DNA from: Sandaracinus amylolyticus
GTDB lineage: Bacteria > Myxococcota_A > Polyangia > Polyangiales > Sandaracinaceae
Assembly: GCF_000737325.1 (NCBI RefSeq)
Contig: NZ_CP011125.1
Span: 6,262,001 to 6,326,000 of the forward strand
DNA: 64,000 nucleotides
Direction: 5' to 3'
Shown here one piece after another: positions 27,611-54,400 of the stretch (positions are counted from its first letter, which is position 1; each line of letters begins with the position of its first letter). Both the position numbers and the translations under genes were made by a program. The notes below the pieces were generated by a model. That model was not told the DNA's origin. It ran no database searches and saw only the letters and a program-made list of their open reading frames with translations.

Positions 27611-27785
27611 GACGCGACGCGCGAAGCGCGGCGGGGCGCGGGGGCGCAGGAGCGACGCGCGAAGCGCGGCGGGGCGCGATTGGGAACGAGTGCGGGAGCG
27701 ACGCGACGCGCGAAGCGCGGCGGGGCGCGATTGGGAACGAGTGCGGGAGCGACGCGACGCGCGAAGCGCGGCGGGGCGCGGGAGC
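27611..27785 (+). repeat. Tandem array built on GACGCGCGAAGCGCGGCG
   Basis: Four copies of the core are seen. The last three units include ATTGGGAACGAGTGCGGGAG spacers with a 51-bp period (ATTGGG at 27679 and 27730). The core contains the palindrome CGCGCGAAGCGCGG, related to the end of the dispersed repeat. It stops 55 bp before the GFA gene. Confidence 0.65.
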
Positions 27786-46154: not shown

Positions 46155-48646
46155 CGCCGCCGCGCCGCCCACAGGGCGATCGCGATCATCACGAGCGCGA
46201 TCGGCGAGCCGCCGCCGGCGCCGCCGGCGCTGCACCCGCCCGACACGCGCCCGTGCGCCGCCGTGCCGCCGTCGGGCGCGTCGCCGCGCACGCCGCCGTC
46301 ACCGCCGGTCGACGGCGGCTCGCACGAGAGGCCGTCGTCGACCTCGCCGTCGCAGTCGTCGTCGCGCTCGTTGCACGTCTCGTCGGTCGCGTGCTCGTCG
46401 ATCTCGCCGTCGCAGTCGTCGTCGACGTCGTTGCAGATCTCGTCGGTCGCGTGCTCGTCGATCTCGCCGTCGCAGTCGTCGTCGCGCCCGTTGCACGACT
46501 CCGTCTCGGCGCGGCACGCGTGGCCCGCGCTGAGGATCGTCGACCAGTAGCGCGGCTCGACCCAGCCGCCTGCGTCGGTGAGCTCGTCGAACGTCACCGC
46601 CGCGCCGAAGCCCTCGCCGGTCGACGGATGGCAGCGCCAGCCCGCGCCCGCGCGCGCGCACACGTCGTCGAGCCCGTCCCCGTCGAAGTCGGCGAGGCGC
46701 ATCGTCTGGTAGTGGCGCGCCTGCGACCAGCCCGACTCGTCGCTCCACTCGGGCCCGGCGCGGCGCGCGAACGCGCTGCCGTCCCACGCGAAGCAGACGA
46801 CGCCCGCGTTGGCGCGCGCACAGAGATCGTCGGCGCCGTCGCCGTCGAGATCGCCCACGCGCAGCGTCGCGTAGTTCGCGATGTCGCTCCAGCCGCTCTC
46901 GTCCGACATCGGATGGACGATCACCGGCTCGCCGAAGCCGCTCCCGGTGCCGCGCACGCAGCGCAGATCGGTCGAGCTGCGCGCGCACAGATCACCGAGC
47001 CCGTCGCCGTCGAAGTCGACGAGGCGCAGCGTGCTCCAGTAGCGCATCGCGCCCCAGCCGCTCTCGTCGCTCCACCGCGGGCCCTCGACGCGCGTGTCGA
47101 ATCCGTCGCCGCTCGATCGCCAGCACTCGACGCCCGCCGCCGCGCGCGCGCACACGTCGGCGCGCCGATCGCCGTCGAGGTCGCCCATGCGGATCGTCCC
47201 GTAGTGGCGCGCCGCGCCCCAGCCGCTCTCGTCGCTCCACCGCGGGCCCTCGATGCGGCGATCGAAGCGCGCTCCGTCGGAGAGCCAGCACCCGAAGCCG
47301 GCGCGATCGCGCGCGCAGAGATCGTCGCGACCATCGCCGTTCACGTCGGCGAGGCGCAGCGTCGTGTAGTAGCGCGGCTGGTTCCACGCGTTCTCGTCGG
47401 AGAGCCCGGCGCGCCACGTGGTGTGCGCGCCGAAGCCGGTGCCGCTCGACACCGCACAGAGCACGTCGGCGTTCGAGCGCGCGCACACGTCGGCGCGCCC
47501 GTCGCCGTTCACGTCGCCCATGCGCAACGTCGCGTAGTTCGTCACGTCGTTCCAGCCGCTCGCGTCGCTCCACGGGATCGCGGCCCAGGGCGCGCTCCAT
47601 CCGCTCGCGCTCGCGGTCCAGCAGCGCACGCCGCCGTAGCCGCGCGCGCAGAGGTCGGCGCGACCGTCGGCGTCGACGTCGGTCGAGCGCGGCGCCGCGT
47701 ACGCCGCGGGCTGCTCGTTCAGCAGCGCGACCTCGCAGAGATCGCCCTCGTCGGTGCGCGCGTCGCAGTCGTCGTCGCGGCCGTTGCACGACTCCGCGAC
47801 GGGCTGCGGCGCGTCGCACGCGCCCCATCCGCCGCCCGAGCACGCCTGGGTGCCCGCGCCGCACGCGCTCGAGCACGCGCGCGTCACGTTCTCGTCGGTG
47901 CGCCCGTCGCAGTCGTCGTCGCGCCCGTTGCACGACTCGGCGGCGGGCGTGCAGCGCGGGACGACCCAGAAGTCCGCGCCCATCTCGTTGAACACGTTGC
48001 GCGTGTTGTCGCGGTAGTGCGCGTAGCGCTGCGAGAAGCACGAGTAGCTCGGCGCGCAGCCGTTGTAGTAGTGGGTGACGGTGCGGATCCACGCGTCCCA
48101 GCGCCCGTTGCCGACGCGCACGCCGTTCATCCACGCGATCGCCTGGGCGCGGGTGTCGACGCCCGAGACGTACGCGCTGCGCACCACCATGCTCGCGACG
48201 AAGTCGACCGCCGCCTGGGTGTTCCCCGCGATGCTGAGGATGCGCGTGCCCTCGCGGCGCAGCGTGTCGTCGAACGTGCCGGCGTCGAACTGGAACATGC
48301 CGAGGCCGCCCTGGCGCGCCGAGCACGGTCCGTCGCCCGCGCCCGCCACGACGGGCCCGCCGCCGCAGTCGCTGCTGTTCGGGCCCTGACAGGCCCAGGT
48401 CAGCTCGCGCCAGCAATGCGACATCTGGGTCTCGGCGTCGGCGATGCCCGCGAGCAGCCAGCCCTGGGTCATGCCCGCGGCGTAGGCGGCGTCGCGGATC
48501 TGCCCGGCGCGCACGCGACGCTGCGCGGCGGTGAGCTCGGACGCGACGACGCCGACCTCGCCGTCGCTCATCGCCATCGGAGCGCGTGGCTCGTTGGTGC
48601 AGGCCGCGAGGAAGACGCAGAGGAGCGAGAGGGAGAGAGCGCGCAT
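46151..48646 (-). CDS. Lipoprotein with lysozyme/transglycosylase-like domain, MopE and FG-GAP repeats, MYXO-CTERM-like tail
   Basis: 831 residues. Lipobox LLCVFLAACTN. Residues 45-225 look like a transglycosylase domain: GIADAETQMSHCW with the candidate catalytic Glu, QGGLGMFQFDAGTFDD like the GLMQ motif, and a C-terminal HYYNGCAPSYSCFSQRYAHY. Then two MopE motifs, seven FG-GAP/VCBS units nearly identical to the next gene, and three MopE motifs. It ends GGCSAGG, a helix and RRR. It would cut the glycan strands while its partner cuts peptides. ATG 48646 fits the lipobox; a GTG lies 12 bases earlier. Confidence 0.8.
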   Translation of the reverse strand: MRALSLSLLCVFLAACTNEPRAPMAMSDGEVGVVASELTAAQRRVRAGQIRDAAYAAGMTQGWLLAGIADAETQMSHCWRELTWACQGPNSSDCGGGPVVAGAGDGPCSARQGGLGMFQFDAGTFDDTLRREGTRILSIAGNTQAAVDFVASMVVRSAYVSGVDTRAQAIAWMNGVRVGNGRWDAWIRTVTHYYNGCAPSYSCFSQRYAHYRDNTRNVFNEMGADFWVVPRCTPAAESCNGRDDDCDGRTDENVTRACSSACGAGTQACSGGGWGACDAPQPVAESCNGRDDDCDARTDEGDLCEVALLNEQPAAYAAPRSTDVDADGRADLCARGYGGVRCWTASASGWSAPWAAIPWSDASGWNDVTNYATLRMGDVNGDGRADVCARSNADVLCAVSSGTGFGAHTTWRAGLSDENAWNQPRYYTTLRLADVNGDGRDDLCARDRAGFGCWLSDGARFDRRIEGPRWSDESGWGAARHYGTIRMGDLDGDRRADVCARAAAGVECWRSSGDGFDTRVEGPRWSDESGWGAMRYWSTLRLVDFDGDGLGDLCARSSTDLRCVRGTGSGFGEPVIVHPMSDESGWSDIANYATLRVGDLDGDGADDLCARANAGVVCFAWDGSAFARRAGPEWSDESGWSQARHYQTMRLADFDGDGLDDVCARAGAGWRCHPSTGEGFGAAVTFDELTDAGGWVEPRYWSTILSAGHACRAETESCNGRDDDCDGEIDEHATDEICNDVDDDCDGEIDEHATDETCNERDDDCDGEVDDGLSCEPPSTGGDGGVRGDAPDGGTAAHGRVSGGCSAGGAGGGSPIALVMIAIALWAARRR
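46407..47927 (-). repeat. Duplicated FG-GAP/MopE coding block, copy in the transglycosylase-like gene
   Basis: Partner of 44020-45540, in tandem orientation, offset 2387 bp. It includes a local internal repeat of the MopE motif at about 46375-46490. Confidence 0.85.
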
Positions 48647-48980
48647 TCGAGCGCGCACTACTCAAGCGACGTGCCGGACGTGGAGCGGCGCGCGAGGATC
48701 GTGATGCGGCGTGGAGGTCGCGCGGGCGCGCGCGGATGCGACGAGGCGGCGCGCGCAGGCGGGCGGAGCGTCCGGGAGTTGATCGGACTGCGGACCGCAC
48801 GCCGCGGTGCGGACCGGGCCGCTCGATCACGCCGTGGGCTGGCTGCGCGCCTCCCATCGACGTCGCGCGAGGAACGCGTGAGGCGTCGTCCGCATGGGGC
48901 GACCCTATTCGAGGGCATCCGTCCCGGCTACGCCTCGCGCCGAACGCGCGCGCAGCCACTCGGGAACGGAGTCGCTGGAC

Positions 48981-49160
48981 AACAGATCTCTCTTGGCGAT
49001 CGCTAACGTTAGAGATTCGGAACAGATCTCTGTTGCCCAGCGGCGTCGTTCCGCCCTCGGCAACAGATCTCCGTTGCTCGGCGACGTCGTTACGCCCTCG
49101 GCAACAGATCTCCGTCGCTCAGCGACGTCGTTACGCCTTCGGCGACAGTCTCTGTCGGCG
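48981..49160. repeat. Five 40-41-bp tandem units starting AACAGATCTC
   Basis: Units start at 48981, 49021, 49062, 49103 and 49144. Each begins with an inverted repeat such as AACAGA-TC-TCTGTT and continues GC(C/T)C(A/G)GCG(A/G)CGTCGTT and GCCCTCGG. Unit 1 and unit 5 are diverged. There are no unique spacers, so it is not CRISPR. The bases 48647-48976 before it hold no supported gene. Confidence 0.75.
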
Positions 49161-49175
49161 CGGCGAGAACGAGAC

Positions 49176-49207
49176 CGCCGCGCCAACCGAGCTCGGTTGG
49201 CGCGGCG
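49176..49207. repeat. Perfect 32-bp palindrome
   Basis: CGCCGCGCCAACCGAG followed by its exact reverse complement, no loop. It sits between the 41-bp array and the 216-bp repeats. Could be a hairpin, dimer binding site or element end. Confidence 0.9.
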
Positions 49208-49287
49208 ACGACGTCAGCGTGCACGGCCCGCAAGGGCGCTTCCGGTGAGGCGATCTCGAGGACGCGCTCGTCGGCGCGCGGTGGTGC

Positions 49288-49721
49288 GATCTCGAGGACG
49301 ATCTGGGTGCTCACCGTGAGGCTTCGGTGTGCACGTTCGCGCAAGGGCGCGCTGGCGCGCGCTCGCGCTCACAGCTGTTTCGGTTGGGTCTCGGCACGCG
49401 GCCGCTCGTGGTGGGGTTGCTTCGCGAGCGCGCGATCTCGAGTCCCCGCGGATCCAGCTCGGGGGCGTGATCTCGAGGACGATCGCGTCGCTTTCGCGAG
49501 CGCGATCTCGAGGACGATCTGGGTGCTCACCGTGAGGCTTCGGTGTGCACGTTCGCGCAAGGGCGCGCTGGCGCGCGCTCGCGCTCACAGCTGTTTCGGT
49601 TGGGTCTCGGCGAGCGGGCCGCTCGTGGTGGGGTTGCTTCGCGAGCGCGCGATCTCGGTCCCCGCGGATCGTGCTCGGGGGCGTGATCTCGAGGACGCGC
49701 CTGAATCATCGACGCGCTCGC
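49288..49721 (+). repeat. Two ~216-bp direct repeats (copies A and B)
   Basis: A is 49288-49503 and B 49504-49721. Each opens with GATCTCGAGGACGATCTGGG and includes TGAGGCTTCGGTGTGCACG, CAAGGGCGCGCTGGCGCG, ACAGCTGTTTCGGTTGGGTC and TGGTGGGGTTGCTTCGCGAG. Copies C and D lie beyond the four-helix gene in the same orientation. A degenerate fragment is at 49215-49260. Open frames here are not conserved and are not called. Confidence 0.85.
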
Positions 49722-49740
49722 GATCTCGAGAACGCATCCC

Positions 49741-49875
49741 CGCTCTCTCTCCCCGCTCTCTCTCCCCGCTCTCTCTCCCCGCTCTCTCTCCCCGCTCTCT
49801 CTCTCCCCGCTCTCGCTCTCGCTCTCGCTCCCGCTCTCGCTCCCGCTCTCGCTCTCGCTCTCGTTCTCGTTCTCG
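49741..49875 (+). repeat. Pyrimidine-rich microsatellite
   Basis: Five copies of GCTCTCTCTCCCC (about 13 bp), then about 12 copies of GCTCTC/GCTCCC. It begins right after repeat B and ends at the terminator of the four-helix gene. Confidence 0.9.
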
Positions 49876-49876
49876 A

Positions 49877-49908
49877 ACGAGCCGGCGGCCTCGCGACCGC
49901 CGGCTCGT
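49877..49908 (-). terminator. Strong hairpin after the four-helix-bundle gene
   Basis: ACGAGCCGGCGG (49877-49888) pairs with 49897-49908, a perfect 12-bp stem with an 8-base loop, 5 bases after the stop. A purine-rich stretch follows rather than T residues. Confidence 0.6.
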
Positions 49909-49913
49909 CTCTC

Positions 49914-50228
49914 TCATCGCGTGCAGCGCACGAGCGTCCCGATGATCCGATCCAGCCGCGCGCGCATCGCGCCGTCCACGCGCGCGGCTCCGAGCGCCTC
50001 GATGACGTCCAGGCACGCGCTCACCTCGCGCGCGCTCCCGAGCGCTGTCAGGTTCCGCGCGCGACGGTGCCCGCCGCGCACCCCCGCGCCCTCCGCGACA
50101 TTGAGCGGCACGCTGATCGCGGCGCGCTCGAGCTGTCGCGCCAGCTCCGCGCTTCGCGTCCTCACCGCTTCGCCGAGCTGCGCTGCAGCGCGCACCAGCT
50201 CGACCGCGTCCGTGTAGATCCTGAGCAT
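49914..50228 (-). CDS. Four-helix-bundle protein (23S-IVS/Avd-like family)
   Basis: 104 residues of four predicted helices. AISVPLNVAEGAGVRGG matches the conserved S.P.NIAEG loop of the family found in 23S rRNA intervening sequences and in Avd, the accessory protein of diversity-generating retroelements. The N-terminal helix (YTDAVELVRAAAQLGEAV) and last helix (MRARLDRIIGTLVR) fit. The family is basic and may bind nucleic acid. No reverse transcriptase or rRNA is nearby. GGAG is 9 bases before the ATG. It sits alone inside a repeat island. Confidence 0.85.
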   Translation of the reverse strand: MLRIYTDAVELVRAAAQLGEAVRTRSAELARQLERAAISVPLNVAEGAGVRGGHRRARNLTALGSAREVSACLDVIEALGAARVDGAMRARLDRIIGTLVRCTR

Positions 50229-50520
50229 CGTCGTCTCCGCGCCCGGCTCGAGGTTCGACGCGCGTCAGTGCGCGCCGACCCGAGCTCGCGTGCGCAGCAC
50301 CTCCGCAGGCGCGCGCAGGCGGGGTCGGGGCTCGCGCAGCGACCGCGCAGCGAAATCGATGGCGAGCCGCTGTTCGCTCGCTGTCGATTTCGTGGAGCGG
50401 CGGGCCCGCAGGGCCCGGCCTCGACGCCGCCGAGCACGCCGGCACGCTCGAGAAGCCCGAGCGACCCGCTCCGGCCTCCCGGTGGCGTGCTGTCGAAGAC
50501 GCGCTCCCGCGCGGCTGCCG

Positions 50521-50672
50521 AGCGCGCGGGAGCGCGTGGGGGAGTGGGAGCGCGGGCGGGTGCGCGTGGGGAATGGGAGCGCGGGCGGGTGCGCGAGCGC
50601 GGGCGGGAGCGGGAGCGCGAGCGCGGGCGGGAGCGGGAGCGGGAGCGGGAGCGCGGGGCGGGAGCGGGAGGT
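50521..50672 (+). repeat. Purine-rich microsatellite
   Basis: Repeats of GGGAGC, GGGAGCGCGAGCGCGGGC and GCGGGCGGGTGCGCG. In strand composition it mirrors the pyrimidine tract on the other side of the four-helix gene. 50229-50520 has no supported gene. Confidence 0.85.
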
Positions 50673-50688
50673 GCTTCGCGGTCGGCGC

Positions 50689-51030
50689 GATCTCGAGGAC
50701 GCGCTCGTCGCTTTCGAGAGCGTGATCTCGAGAACGATCTGGGTGCCCACCGTGAGGCTTCGGCGTGCACGTTCGCGCAAGGGCGCGCTGGCGCGCGCTC
50801 GCGCTCACAGCTGTTTCGGTTGGGTCTCGGCGAGCGGGCCGCTCGTGGTGGGGTTGCTTCGCAAGCGCGCGATCTCGAGTCCCCGCAGATCGTGCTCGCG
50901 GGCGCGATCTCGCGGACATGCTCGTCGGCTTGCGGTGAGGTGATCTCGAGGACGATCTGGGTGCCCACCGTGAGGCTCGGCGTGCACGTTCACGCAAGGG
51001 CGCGCTGGCGCGCGCTGGCGCACTCGGATG
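50689..51030 (+). repeat. ~218-bp repeats, copy C and truncated copy D
   Basis: GATCTCGAGGACG at 50689 and a variant at 50724 open copy C (50724-50941); D starts at 50942 and fades out by about 51030. Sequence follows copies A and B closely, for example GTGAGGCTTCGGCGTGCACG and ACAGCTGTTTCGGTTGGGTC in C. Confidence 0.85.
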
Positions 51031-51075
51031 CTCACTGCGAGCGATCCGTGACCGCACGTCCGCGCGCCCTCCCCG

Positions 51076-51453
51076 ATCTCGCGCGACAGCGCGCACACGC
51101 GCGAAGCGCGGTGCTACACGCGAGCGTCCGGGCCGCGGCGAAGCGCGGACCGGTCGCGAGCCATCTCACCCCAAGCCAGCGAGACGGCAGAACCGCGGTA
51201 CCGGGCGGGGGGTGGAGGGGCCGGCGCCCTCGTGCGACGGGGGCCGCCGAGGCCGACCACAGACTGATCGAAGCATCGCGGCAGAGCGCGAAGCGCGCGC
51301 CGCGATGCGACCACCGCGTCCCGACGCTCGCGCCCTCTCATGACAGCAGCCCGGGAGCACACAGGGCGTCGGCCCCTCCACCCCCCGCCTCACGCCGAAG
51401 CCCCTCCGAACGTCTCCGAGGCGGCCCCTCCACCCCCCGCCTCACGCCGAAGC
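51076..51453 (-). repeat. Dispersed ~340-bp repeat, copy 2, just after the RCC1 gene
   Basis: Minus-strand match to 27268-27605. It starts 3 bases after the RCC1-gene stop with GCTTCGGCGTGAGGCGG. The first ~50 bp occur twice in tandem (51371-51403 and 51422-51454). The region to 51030 has no supported gene. Confidence 0.75.
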
Positions 51454-51456
51454 CTC

Positions 51457-54400
51457 TCAGGGCAATCCACGCACCGGGATCACGACTCCGCGACCCAATT
51501 GCCCCGTGTCGTCGTCCCCCCAGCACATCACCCGACCGCCCGTCACGAGCGCGCAGTTGAAGCCCCAGCCCGCCGCGAGCGCCGTCGCGCCCGTCACGCC
51601 GACGACGCTCACCGGCGCCACCGCACCCGCGCCGGTGCCGTCGCCGGTCGCCTCGCCGGCGCCCCAGCAGCGCACGGTGCCGTCGGCCACGATCGCGCAG
51701 GTGTTCTCGCTGCCGGCCGCGAGCGCGCGCAGCCCGGTGAGCGCGGGCCCCGTCGTCGGTCGCGCCGCGTCGACCGTGCCGCCGTCGCCGAGCTGTCCGG
51801 TGCCGTTCTCGCCCCAGCACGACACGCCGGCGTCGGTCGCCACGCACGCGTGCCGGCTGCCGACCGCGAGGTGCGCCGGCGCCGACGCGAGACCCATCAC
51901 CGGCATCGGCACGCCGTTCGACCCGCCGATGTCGCCTCGCCCGAGCTGACCGCTGACGTTCGAGCCCCAGCACCACGAGCCGCCGGGCTGCACGCCGCAC
52001 GCGAAGCCGCTGCCGAGGGCCAGCACGCCGGTGTCGATCGCCACCTCGATCGGCGTCGCGGAGTCGACGCCGCCCGGCAGGAAGCTGGACCCGCCGTCGC
52101 CCCAGCAGAAGACGTCGCCGTCGCTCTCCGTCGCGCAGCTCGTGCCCAGTGCGGCGTCGACCGAGGTCACCGTGCCGAGCCCGCCCACCACCGGCGCCGC
52201 CGTCGAGCGCACGACGAGCGTGCCGTCGCCGAGCTCGCCCTCCGCGTTGTCGCCCCAGCACCAGACCTCGCCGCCGCGCAGCGCGCAGCTGTGCCGCCAC
52301 CCGAGCGCGATCGCGCTCGCGCCCGTCACGCCCGCGTCGACCGGCCCCCACGCCGGGCGGCCCGCGGGCACGCCGAGCCGCCCCTGGCCGCTCGCGCCCC
52401 AGCACCGCACGGCGCCAGAGACGATCGCGCACCCGTGCTGCGCGCCGGCCGCGATCGCGGTCGCGCCCGAGATGCCGGCGACCGGCGCCGCGAAGCGCTG
52501 ACCTCCGTCGCCGACCACGGGCGAGCCGCGCTCGCCCCAGCACACCACGTCCCCCGTCGCACGCCGCACGCAGGCCGCGTGGCCCATCGCGATCTCGACC
52601 GCGTCGTCGATGCCCGCGACCGTGAGCGGACCGCGCCCGACGCCGCTGCTCACGCCGTCGCCGACCGGCAGCCCCGAGCCCCAGCAGCGCACGTGGCCGT
52701 CGGTGCACACCGCGCACGTCGCGGTGGAGCCCGCCGCGATCTCGGCGACGTCGCAGCCGACCGCGACGGTGCGTGGCGCCGACGCGGTCGAGATGGTGCC
52801 GTCGATCAAGCCGCCCGAGCCGCTGCCCCAGCAGCGGACCTCGCCGGTCGCGAGCAGCGCGCACGCGTGCAGCGAGCCGAGGTCGAGCTGGCGCACCCCC
52901 GAGAGGCCCATGACCGGGCCGGGCACGTGCGTGTCCCCGACGGTGGGGCCACGGCCGAGCTGGCTCGGCGCGCCCCAGCACCACACCGTGCCGTCGCGGC
53001 GGCGCGCGCACGCGAAGCTGCCGCCGGTGTCGACGGCGACCGCGTCGTCGATCCCGATCACGTCGATCGGCGTGTCGCTGCGCCCGACCGCGCCCGCGCC
53101 GAGCTGGCCCGAGCCGTTGTTGCCCCAGCAGCGCACGCGCCCGTTGCGCAGCCGCAAGCAGCCGTTCGAGTAGCGCAGCGAGGCCTCGACGACGTCGCTC
53201 GTGCCGGGCATCGGCGTGCTCGGACCGAGGCGGTCGGGCCCCTCGGGCTCACCGAGCGAGGCGCCGCTGCCCCAGCACAGCAGCGCTCCGTCGCTCCGCA
53301 CGCCGCAGCTCGACGACGGTCCGACCCCGAGCTGCTCGAAGGCGAAGCCGCCGCTGACCGCGACCGCGCCGGGACGCGGCGCGGTCGTGCCGTCGCCGAG
53401 CTGTCCCTCGTCGTTGGCGCCCCAGCAGTACGCGGCCGTGCCCTCGAGCGCGCACGCCTCGTCGTCGGGGCCGACCTCGATCGTGCGGCGCGGCTCGCAG
53501 GTGCCGCCGTCGCAGGCGTAGCCGACGCCGCACCACGCGTTCATCGCGGGCTGGGGATCGGCGGTGCCGTCGCAGTCGTTGTCGCGCCCGTCGCAGACCT
53601 CGGGCGCGCCGAGGAACGAGAAGCGATCGGCGTCGTTGCAGTCGTCCTTCGGGAAGCCCGCCGTGCAGGTCGCGGCGAGCGGGGCGTGCCCGTCGCGATC
53701 GCCGTCTTCGGCGAGGTCCTCGCCGCCCGCGGCGGCGCCGGGGAGCGTGCAGTCGGAGTCGATGCGATCGCAGCGCTCGGTCGCGCCGGGATGGATGTCC
53801 GCGTCGCCGTCGCGGCAGTCGTTGCCGAGCGCGACGTGGCCGCTCGGGATGACGCAGTCGAGGCGCGTGACGGTGGTGCCGGGGTCGCCGTAGCCGTCGC
53901 CGTCGGAGTCGCGGTAGTAGGTGCGCGAGCCGGCCTCGTCGGTGGCGCCATCGCAGTTGTTGTCGATGCCGTCACACAGCTCGGTCGCCGCGGGGTTACG
54001 GAGGCGCACGGTGTCGTCGCAGTCGGTCGCGTCGTCCTCGACGTGCCGCGCCGGCGCGTTGCACGCCATCACCGGCGTCGCGCCCTCGCGCCCGTATCCG
54101 TCGCCGTCGTCGTCGGGGTAGTAGCTGCGGAGCGCGCCCTCGTCGCTGAGCCCGTCGCAGTCGTCGTCGAGGCCGTTGCAGCTGTCGGTCGCGCCGCGGT
54201 GCGCGGCGGCGCGGGTGTCGTCGCAGTCGGAGCCGCAGTGGCGGGTGTCGGGGGCGTCGTTGCAGCACGCGGCGTCGGGGAAGCCGTCGCCGTCGCCGTC
54301 GCGCACGCCGAAGGTGCGAGGGTCGCAGTCCTCGTCGTGGTCGGCCGCGTCGCAGACCTCGGGGTTGCCGGGGAAGCGGTTGCGATCGCCGTCGTCGCAG

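What the first reader, a model, noticed from the sequence alone, without database searches (positions are those of the whole stretch)
48981..51453. Repeat island with nested symmetry around one Avd-like gene
The order is 41-bp array, palindrome, repeats A-B, CT tract, terminator, four-helix gene, GA tract, repeats C-D, dispersed repeat. The gene is the only supported gene in 2.8 kb and carries its own Shine-Dalgarno and terminator. The family occurs in rRNA inserts and as Avd in diversity-generating retroelements. This may be an undescribed non-autonomous element or a nucleic-acid-binding protein acting on the repeats.
Basis: partly seen in the sequence, partly recalled or inferred. Interest (0 to 1): 0.75.

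Follow-up and report, generated by a model that had tools for sequence, protein, structure and literature searches.

The report
Jumping gene framed by mirrored repeats
A small gene of unknown function, known mainly from odd insertions in bacterial ribosomal RNA, turns out to sit in a compact, probably mobile DNA element whose two ends are short tandem repeats, usually mirror images of each other; the same framing recurs in many bacterial phyla and gives a concrete way to study how these insertions spread.

Summary
The island is real, but only its core is the element. Core, window about 49737-50670: inverted simple-repeat arm, strong hairpin, PF05635 four-helix gene (49914-50228, minus), structured leader (50298-50452), inverted arm. 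Three copies lie in this genome. The 41-bp array, palindrome, 216-bp repeats A-D and 300-bp dispersed repeat are separate. The leader shows strong covariation and no Rfam match. In myxobacteria nearly every copy carries long tracts, mostly of 6-bp units. Two insertions (1.0-1.2 kb, bounded by their tracts) in the sister species are missing at the orthologous sites of this genome; another, in a more distant genus, is absent from four relatives. In other phyla 21 of 30 further PF05635 genes have unit-matched arrays of 6-10 bp units on both sides, 20 inverted, against 3.6% for cross-paired loci and 0/50 for displaced controls. Units differ between elements and are shared within subfamilies. I read this as a foldback-like dispersed element coding one RNA-binding-type protein, related to 23S rRNA intervening sequences but outside rRNA. 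That it is an insertion/deletion unit is well supported; the mobility mechanism, and whether the protein or a trans-acting enzyme drives it, is inferred.

The parts
50522..50670 (-). upstream arm: simple-repeat tract, CCCGCT-type on the gene strand
   Evidence: TRF; inverted partner of the CT tract
50298..50452 (-). conserved structured leader: stems P1 and P2 enclosing variable hairpins
   Evidence: covariation; model R1 hit; fold -91.4 kcal/mol, z -2.6; no Rfam match
49914..50228 (-). PF05635/TIGR02436 four-helix protein, 104 aa, ATG at 50228, GGAG just upstream
   Evidence: AlphaFold2 pLDDT 96; PDB 2gsc TM 0.90; dN/dS 0.22 against the G002 orthologue
49870..49908 (-). strong GC hairpin just after the stop codon, terminator-like
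   Evidence: sequence; fold about -33 kcal/mol; present in the L040 copy
49737..49875 (-). downstream arm: simple-repeat tract, GAGCGA-type on the gene strand, inverted relative to the upstream arm
   Evidence: TRF; inverted pair
49286..49733 (+). 216-bp genus-level intergenic repeat, copies A-B (surroundings, not element)
50684..51030 (+). 216-bp repeat, copies C-D (surroundings, not element)

Best explanation
The core (window about 49737-50670) is one copy of a small dispersed element. It consists of two simple-repeat arms, a structured leader, one gene for a PF05635 four-helix protein and a strong hairpin after the gene. SHOWN by comparison: the core occurs in several copies at unrelated places; whole copies, arms included, are present in one species and absent at the exact orthologous place in another; the two arms of one copy share a unit, usually in inverted orientation; the leader has a conserved secondary structure; the protein is under purifying selection. 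INFERRED mechanism: the arms act as foldback ends recognised by structure rather than by a fixed terminal sequence, since the unit changes between elements while the gene and leader are conserved. The protein, by analogy with Avd and with 23S rRNA intervening-sequence proteins, binds the leader RNA in cis as a pentamer, and the complex, with a host or trans-acting nuclease or polymerase, copies the element into new sites. Arms then lengthen and shorten by replication slippage. In rRNA the same inverted ends would give the RNase III-cleaved stem of a 23S intervening sequence.
For: Copies: three of core plus leader in this genome and nine PF05635 genes in all; the sister genome has the orthologous island (flanks 92-95%) plus others; G007 has about 30 gene hits with similarity confined to core and tracts. 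Absent sites: the G002 element at 396523 (insertion about 1230 bp, tract to tract) lies between neighbouring bases of the G000 site; the one at 5621929 is replaced in G000 by a 40-bp mini-palindrome of the same tract. A G012 element is missing in G020 (four hexamers at the site), in G047, in G050 (no tract) and in G040 (site carries unrelated sequence). Arms: 42 of 56 myxobacterial copies have tracts on both sides against 5.8% of random placements; own arms match far above other pairs; (GTGAGC)n in two 10-Mb genomes lies almost only at the elements of one subfamily. Other phyla: first set 20/34 matched; independent set 21/30, 20 inverted; controls 3.6%, 6.3% within genome, 0/50 displaced. Leader: 93% of cells paired, 70 compensatory cells against 18 shuffled, slid structures 35-46%; all 14 hits in G000 and G002 lie just upstream of the gene or its remnant. 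Selection: dN/dS 0.015, 0.03, 0.22.
Against: No transposition was observed and no catalytic enzyme is encoded. No clear target-site duplication was seen. Some absent sites hold 2-5 repeat units, so loss by slippage is possible for them. Arms are direct, not inverted, in G007 and in most tail-to-tail pairs, and solo tracts without the gene exist in one genus. The window's own arms are diverged (match 0.18, rank 10 of 42). The R1 leader was not found in several gene-bearing genomes, including genus g9, where a long hairpin overlapping the Shine-Dalgarno takes its place. Nine of the 30 independent loci showed no matched arms.
Confidence: 0.7

Rival explanations
1. Non-autonomous element moved entirely in trans: an unlinked reverse transcriptase or transposase recognises the folded arms or the leader, and the four-helix protein is an accessory or regulator.
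For: The element codes nothing catalytic; each of the five surveyed genomes with gene copies also has at least one RVT_1 gene, while G020 has neither; Avd works only with an RT (PMC10053308).
Against: No conserved end sequence that a transposase could recognise; RT number does not follow copy number (G007: 1 RT, about 30 hits; G000: 14 RT, 9 genes).
Confidence: 0.3
2. Not mobile: an ordinary host gene in unstable intergenic DNA, whose matched inverted arrays are rapidly evolving terminators or insulators; absent sites are losses.
For: Genes under purifying selection; some copies lie just after stop codons of neighbours (L041, L138); partial remnants exist (L139/L215, L219, L271).
Against: Copy number from 0 to about 30 in related genomes, unrelated flanks, and absent sites without tract in G050 and essentially without tract in G000 L216.
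Confidence: 0.12
3. The gene moves passively with the 216-bp R repeats by recombination (R-core-R replaces a single R).
For: G000 L041 has R-core-R where G002 has one R; all three P0001-type copies in G000 are flanked by R.
Against: R was found in one genus only, while the architecture recurs without R in other genera and phyla.
Confidence: 0.1

Closest known systems
23S rRNA intervening sequences (IVS) with S23p/IVP, e.g. Coxiella burnetii IVS (PMC4990558)
   Same: Same protein family; short element with terminal inverted repeats that can form a stem around the gene; described as selfish, with origin and mobility unclear
   Different: Here the element lies outside rRNA genes, is multi-copy, has a conserved leader structure, and its arms are tandem arrays of short units; RNase III processing untested
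Avd of diversity-generating retroelements (PDB 4dwl, 8ube)
   Same: Four-helix bundle fold (TM 0.73-0.75); Avd works with a structured RNA
   Different: Sequence identity 5-8%; no RT, template repeat or variable repeat was seen in the island; no dedicated RT search near each copy elsewhere
Foldback (FB/Galileo/Tetris) elements of insects
   Same: Terminal inverted repeats built of tandem repeats around a central part (abstracts of PMC4079207, PMC3573991; detail from memory)
   Different: Eukaryotic, much longer, linked to transposases; no homology claimed
REP/RAYT and IS200/IS605 systems (from memory)
   Same: Small gene flanked by hairpin-forming repeats
   Different: The protein here is not a Y1/HUH nuclease; arm sequence is not conserved

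Membership tests
PF05635 / TIGR02436 four-helix (23S_rRNA_IVP) proteins | profile score over the curated cut-off | tested here: met
   45.3 over 33.8 and 45.9 over 24 bits
PF05635 / TIGR02436 four-helix (23S_rRNA_IVP) proteins | four-helix bundle fold | tested here: met
   AlphaFold2 pLDDT 96, four helices; 2gsc TM 0.90
23S rRNA intervening sequence | inserted in a 23S rRNA gene | tested here: not met
   island lies between two protein genes; no rRNA match in the Rfam search of 48600-51600
23S rRNA intervening sequence | terminal inverted repeats able to form a stem | tested here: met
   inverted arms
23S rRNA intervening sequence | excision by RNase III | not testable with these tools
   needs an RNA assay
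Diversity-generating retroelement | RT with TR/VR pair next to the Avd gene | tested here: not met
   no other supported gene in the 2.8-kb island; none of the genome's RVT_1 hits lies in the window
Classical insertion sequence | transposase gene in the element | tested here: not met
   only the PF05635 gene is present
Classical insertion sequence | terminal sequence conserved among copies | tested here: not met
   arm units differ between elements and subfamilies
Mobile element in general | precise occupied and empty orthologous sites | tested here: met
Mobile element in general | target-site duplication | tested here: inconclusive
   short repeat units at the junctions obscure it

The most novel reading that the evidence does not exclude
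Free-standing PF05635 genes across bacteria are the cargo and driver of a new class of mobile element: an RNP-type element whose ends are defined by structure, as inverted arrays of an element-specific short unit, rather than by sequence; 23S rRNA intervening sequences are those copies that landed in rRNA genes.
Probability: 0.45. Interest if true: 0.92.

Novelty: new variant of a known kind. Interest (0 to 1): 0.78.

Why it matters
PF05635 is a family without known function, and the origin of rRNA intervening sequences is still described as unclear more than 25 years after their discovery (PMC4990558). If the genes are generally framed by matched inverted simple repeats and come and go as units, the family becomes a testable mobile-element family with measurable copies, empty sites, a candidate RNA partner and a structural model. 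It would also be a transposable unit without conserved end sequences, and a link between mobile elements and microsatellite growth in bacteria. A practical side point, inferred only: such arrays may be mistaken for CRISPR arrays, which could explain why 23S rRNA IVP appears in a CRISPR-association screen (PMC10910872).

Tried and rejected
Whole island as one element: rejected, its parts have independent distributions. Known Rfam RNA: no match over threshold. Phage or plasmid origin: no match. Insertion into long pre-existing tracts as the general rule: not supported, absent sites have none or a few units. RT in trans: survey inconclusive. Single-protein scan of genome contigs found nothing; an alignment of closer members worked. 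One wide alignment had no usable seed. Four RNA-model hits in G039 lie among repeated IS-like ends without the gene and may be a shorter relative or chance.

Full report
1. What is in the window. The window lies at 6262001-6326000 of a single-contig 10,327,335-bp genome. The gene on the minus strand, 49914-50228, codes 104 residues and scores above the cut-offs of PF05635 (23S_rRNA_IVP) and TIGR02436. Its AlphaFold2 model (pLDDT 96) matches PDB 2gsc at TM 0.90, 2rld at 0.86 and Avd of the DGR ribonucleoprotein at about 0.75.

2. Taking the island apart. A search of the island against its own genome shows independent distributions. The stretch from about 51077 to 51405 recurs over 30 times elsewhere. 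The 216-bp unit (repeats A-D, here called R) occurs about 20 times in this genome and 18 times in the closed sister genome G002, and was not found in the other 54 relatives searched. The 41-bp array and palindrome gave no second copy and did not align with the orthologous island in G002. What recurs with the gene is the core: leader, gene, hairpin and simple-repeat tracts. It is found at two other places of this genome, 6389960 (gene broken) and 6404582 (gene truncated), each also flanked by R.

3. The conserved leader. Alignment of the DNA upstream of 23 PF05635 genes from eight genomes gave a consensus of two stems, P1 and P2, enclosing variable hairpins. For the named structure, on 19 of them, 93% of cells pair, with 70 compensatory cells against a shuffled mean of 18.4, and structures slid by 1-3 columns pair in only 35-46%. 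No Rfam family reaches threshold. The covariance model finds hits in 16 of 56 relatives; all seven in G000 and all seven in G002 lie just upstream of a PF05635 gene or its remnant. Leaders with a degenerate or truncated gene also occur (L257, L271). In genus g9 (G012, G040) the model finds nothing, and a long hairpin overlapping the Shine-Dalgarno stands before the gene instead.

4. Tracts in myxobacteria. Nearly every PF05635 copy inspected has simple-repeat tracts, mostly of 6-bp units, some 200-300 bp upstream and 50-200 bp downstream. In 42 of 56 copies with enough flank both sides carry tract within 700 bp, against 5.8% of random placements in 400 kb of this genome; mean tract bins are 3-11 against 0.6. 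The two tracts of one element resemble each other much more than those of other elements on average. They are inverted in the single-gene elements of this genus and direct in most tail-to-tail pairs and in G007. The pattern (GTGAGC)4, searched over both whole genomes of the genus, hits almost only four elements of one subfamily. So the unit goes with the element subfamily.

5. Occupied and empty sites. The G002 element at 396523 (L138 2044-3273) is missing between neighbouring bases at the G000 site; flanks align at 87-90% on both sides, and the missing 1230 bp runs from tract start to tract end. The G002 element at 5621929 is missing in G000, where a 40-bp palindrome of the same tract stands (GCGTGTCGCGTGAGCGTGAGCGTGGGGGCTCACGCTCACG); this may be a remnant or a target. 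The G000 copy at 6404582 sits as R-core-R where G002 has a single R. In genus g9 the element L162 is absent from G020 (four repeat units at the site), from G047, from G050 with no tract at all, and from G040, where the site carries other sequence. The window's own copy is shared with G002 and is therefore older.

6. Beyond myxobacteria. PF05635 genes of other phyla rarely have long tracts, but short arrays are present. In a first set of 34 loci (four of them myxobacterial or delta-proteobacterial) 20 had unit-matched arrays on both sides, 19 inverted; cross-paired loci 4%. I then took PF05635 copies found by profile in 14 genomes (Flavobacterium, Niastella, Gemmatimonadetes, CPR groups, Chlamydiae, Acidobacteriota, Verrucomicrobiales, Nitrospira, one Sorangium and others). 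Of 30 loci not used before, 21 had matched arrays of 6-10 bp units (or multiples) and 20 were inverted. Cross-locus pairs matched in 3.6%, cross-locus pairs within a genome in 6.3%, displaced gene positions in 0 of 50. Examples: GTTCTAAT before and ATTAGAAC after the gene in a Moranbacterium; AAACTT and AGTTTA in a Verrucomicrobiales genome. The threshold (cosine 0.3) was set on the first set and kept for the second.

7. Selection. dN/dS between orthologues in G000 and G002 is 0.015, 0.03 and, for the window gene, 0.22, so the proteins are maintained.

8. How it probably works. Shown: an insertion/deletion unit with matched arms, a structured leader and a selected protein. Inferred: the arms fold back, the protein binds the leader RNA in cis as Avd-type pentamers do, and a host or trans enzyme performs the DNA or RNA steps. 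The lack of a conserved end sequence argues for recognition by structure or by the RNA-protein complex. Arms seem to grow and shrink after insertion. Reverse transcriptase genes are present in all five surveyed genomes that carry the gene and absent from G020, which has none, but numbers do not follow copy number. I rate the element reading at 0.7 and the full mechanism well below that.

9. Relation to what is known. 23S rRNA intervening sequences carry the same protein, are bounded by inverted repeats (28-bp stem in Coxiella) and are cut out by RNase III; their origin and mobility are described as unclear, a mobile-element origin having been proposed (PMC4990558). The present element is not a member, since it is not in rRNA. 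A paper on DGRs noted that PF05635 resembles Avd (PMC10053308). A CRISPR-association screen lists 23S rRNA IVP (PMC10910872). No held paper found describes free-standing PF05635 genes between matched repeat arrays; the library is open-access only, so this is not proof of novelty. I chose 'new variant of a known kind' because the IVS elements are a clear relative; the categorical reading is given as the novel case.

10. Limits. Array matching used one program and one threshold. The random-placement control was made in one genome. Genomes are anonymous except those from genome contigs. Some tract reading depends on draft assemblies. No experiment was done.

Noticed in passing
window 49286-49733 and 50684-51030: 216-bp intergenic repeat R, about 20 copies here and 18 in the sister genome, not found in 54 other relatives; often in tandem; function unknown.
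   Followed up: partly
window 51077-51405: 300-bp dispersed repeat, over 30 copies in the genome, with an inverted GGCGGGGGGTGGAGGGGCC motif inside; independent of the gene.
   Followed up: partly
L145, L147, L152, L153, L155: PF05635 genes as tail-to-tail pairs between one outer pair of tracts, in several myxobacterial families.
   Followed up: partly
L160 1905-1990, L163 about 1940-2020: Long hairpin overlapping the Shine-Dalgarno of PF05635 genes in genus g9, a possible guard against read-through translation.
   Followed up: no
L261-L264 (G039): Four copies of a short leader-like hairpin between IS-like ends, without the gene.
   Followed up: partly
L361, L363, L366: CACTGN tracts without a PF05635 gene nearby, possibly solo tracts left by recombination between direct arms.
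   Followed up: partly
window 27652-27780: Perfect 51-bp tandem repeat, 2.5 copies at 100% identity.
   Followed up: no
L040 1666-4037: The 2.4-kb insertion relative to G002 contains, besides the broken core, a further reading frame and other short repeats.
   Followed up: no
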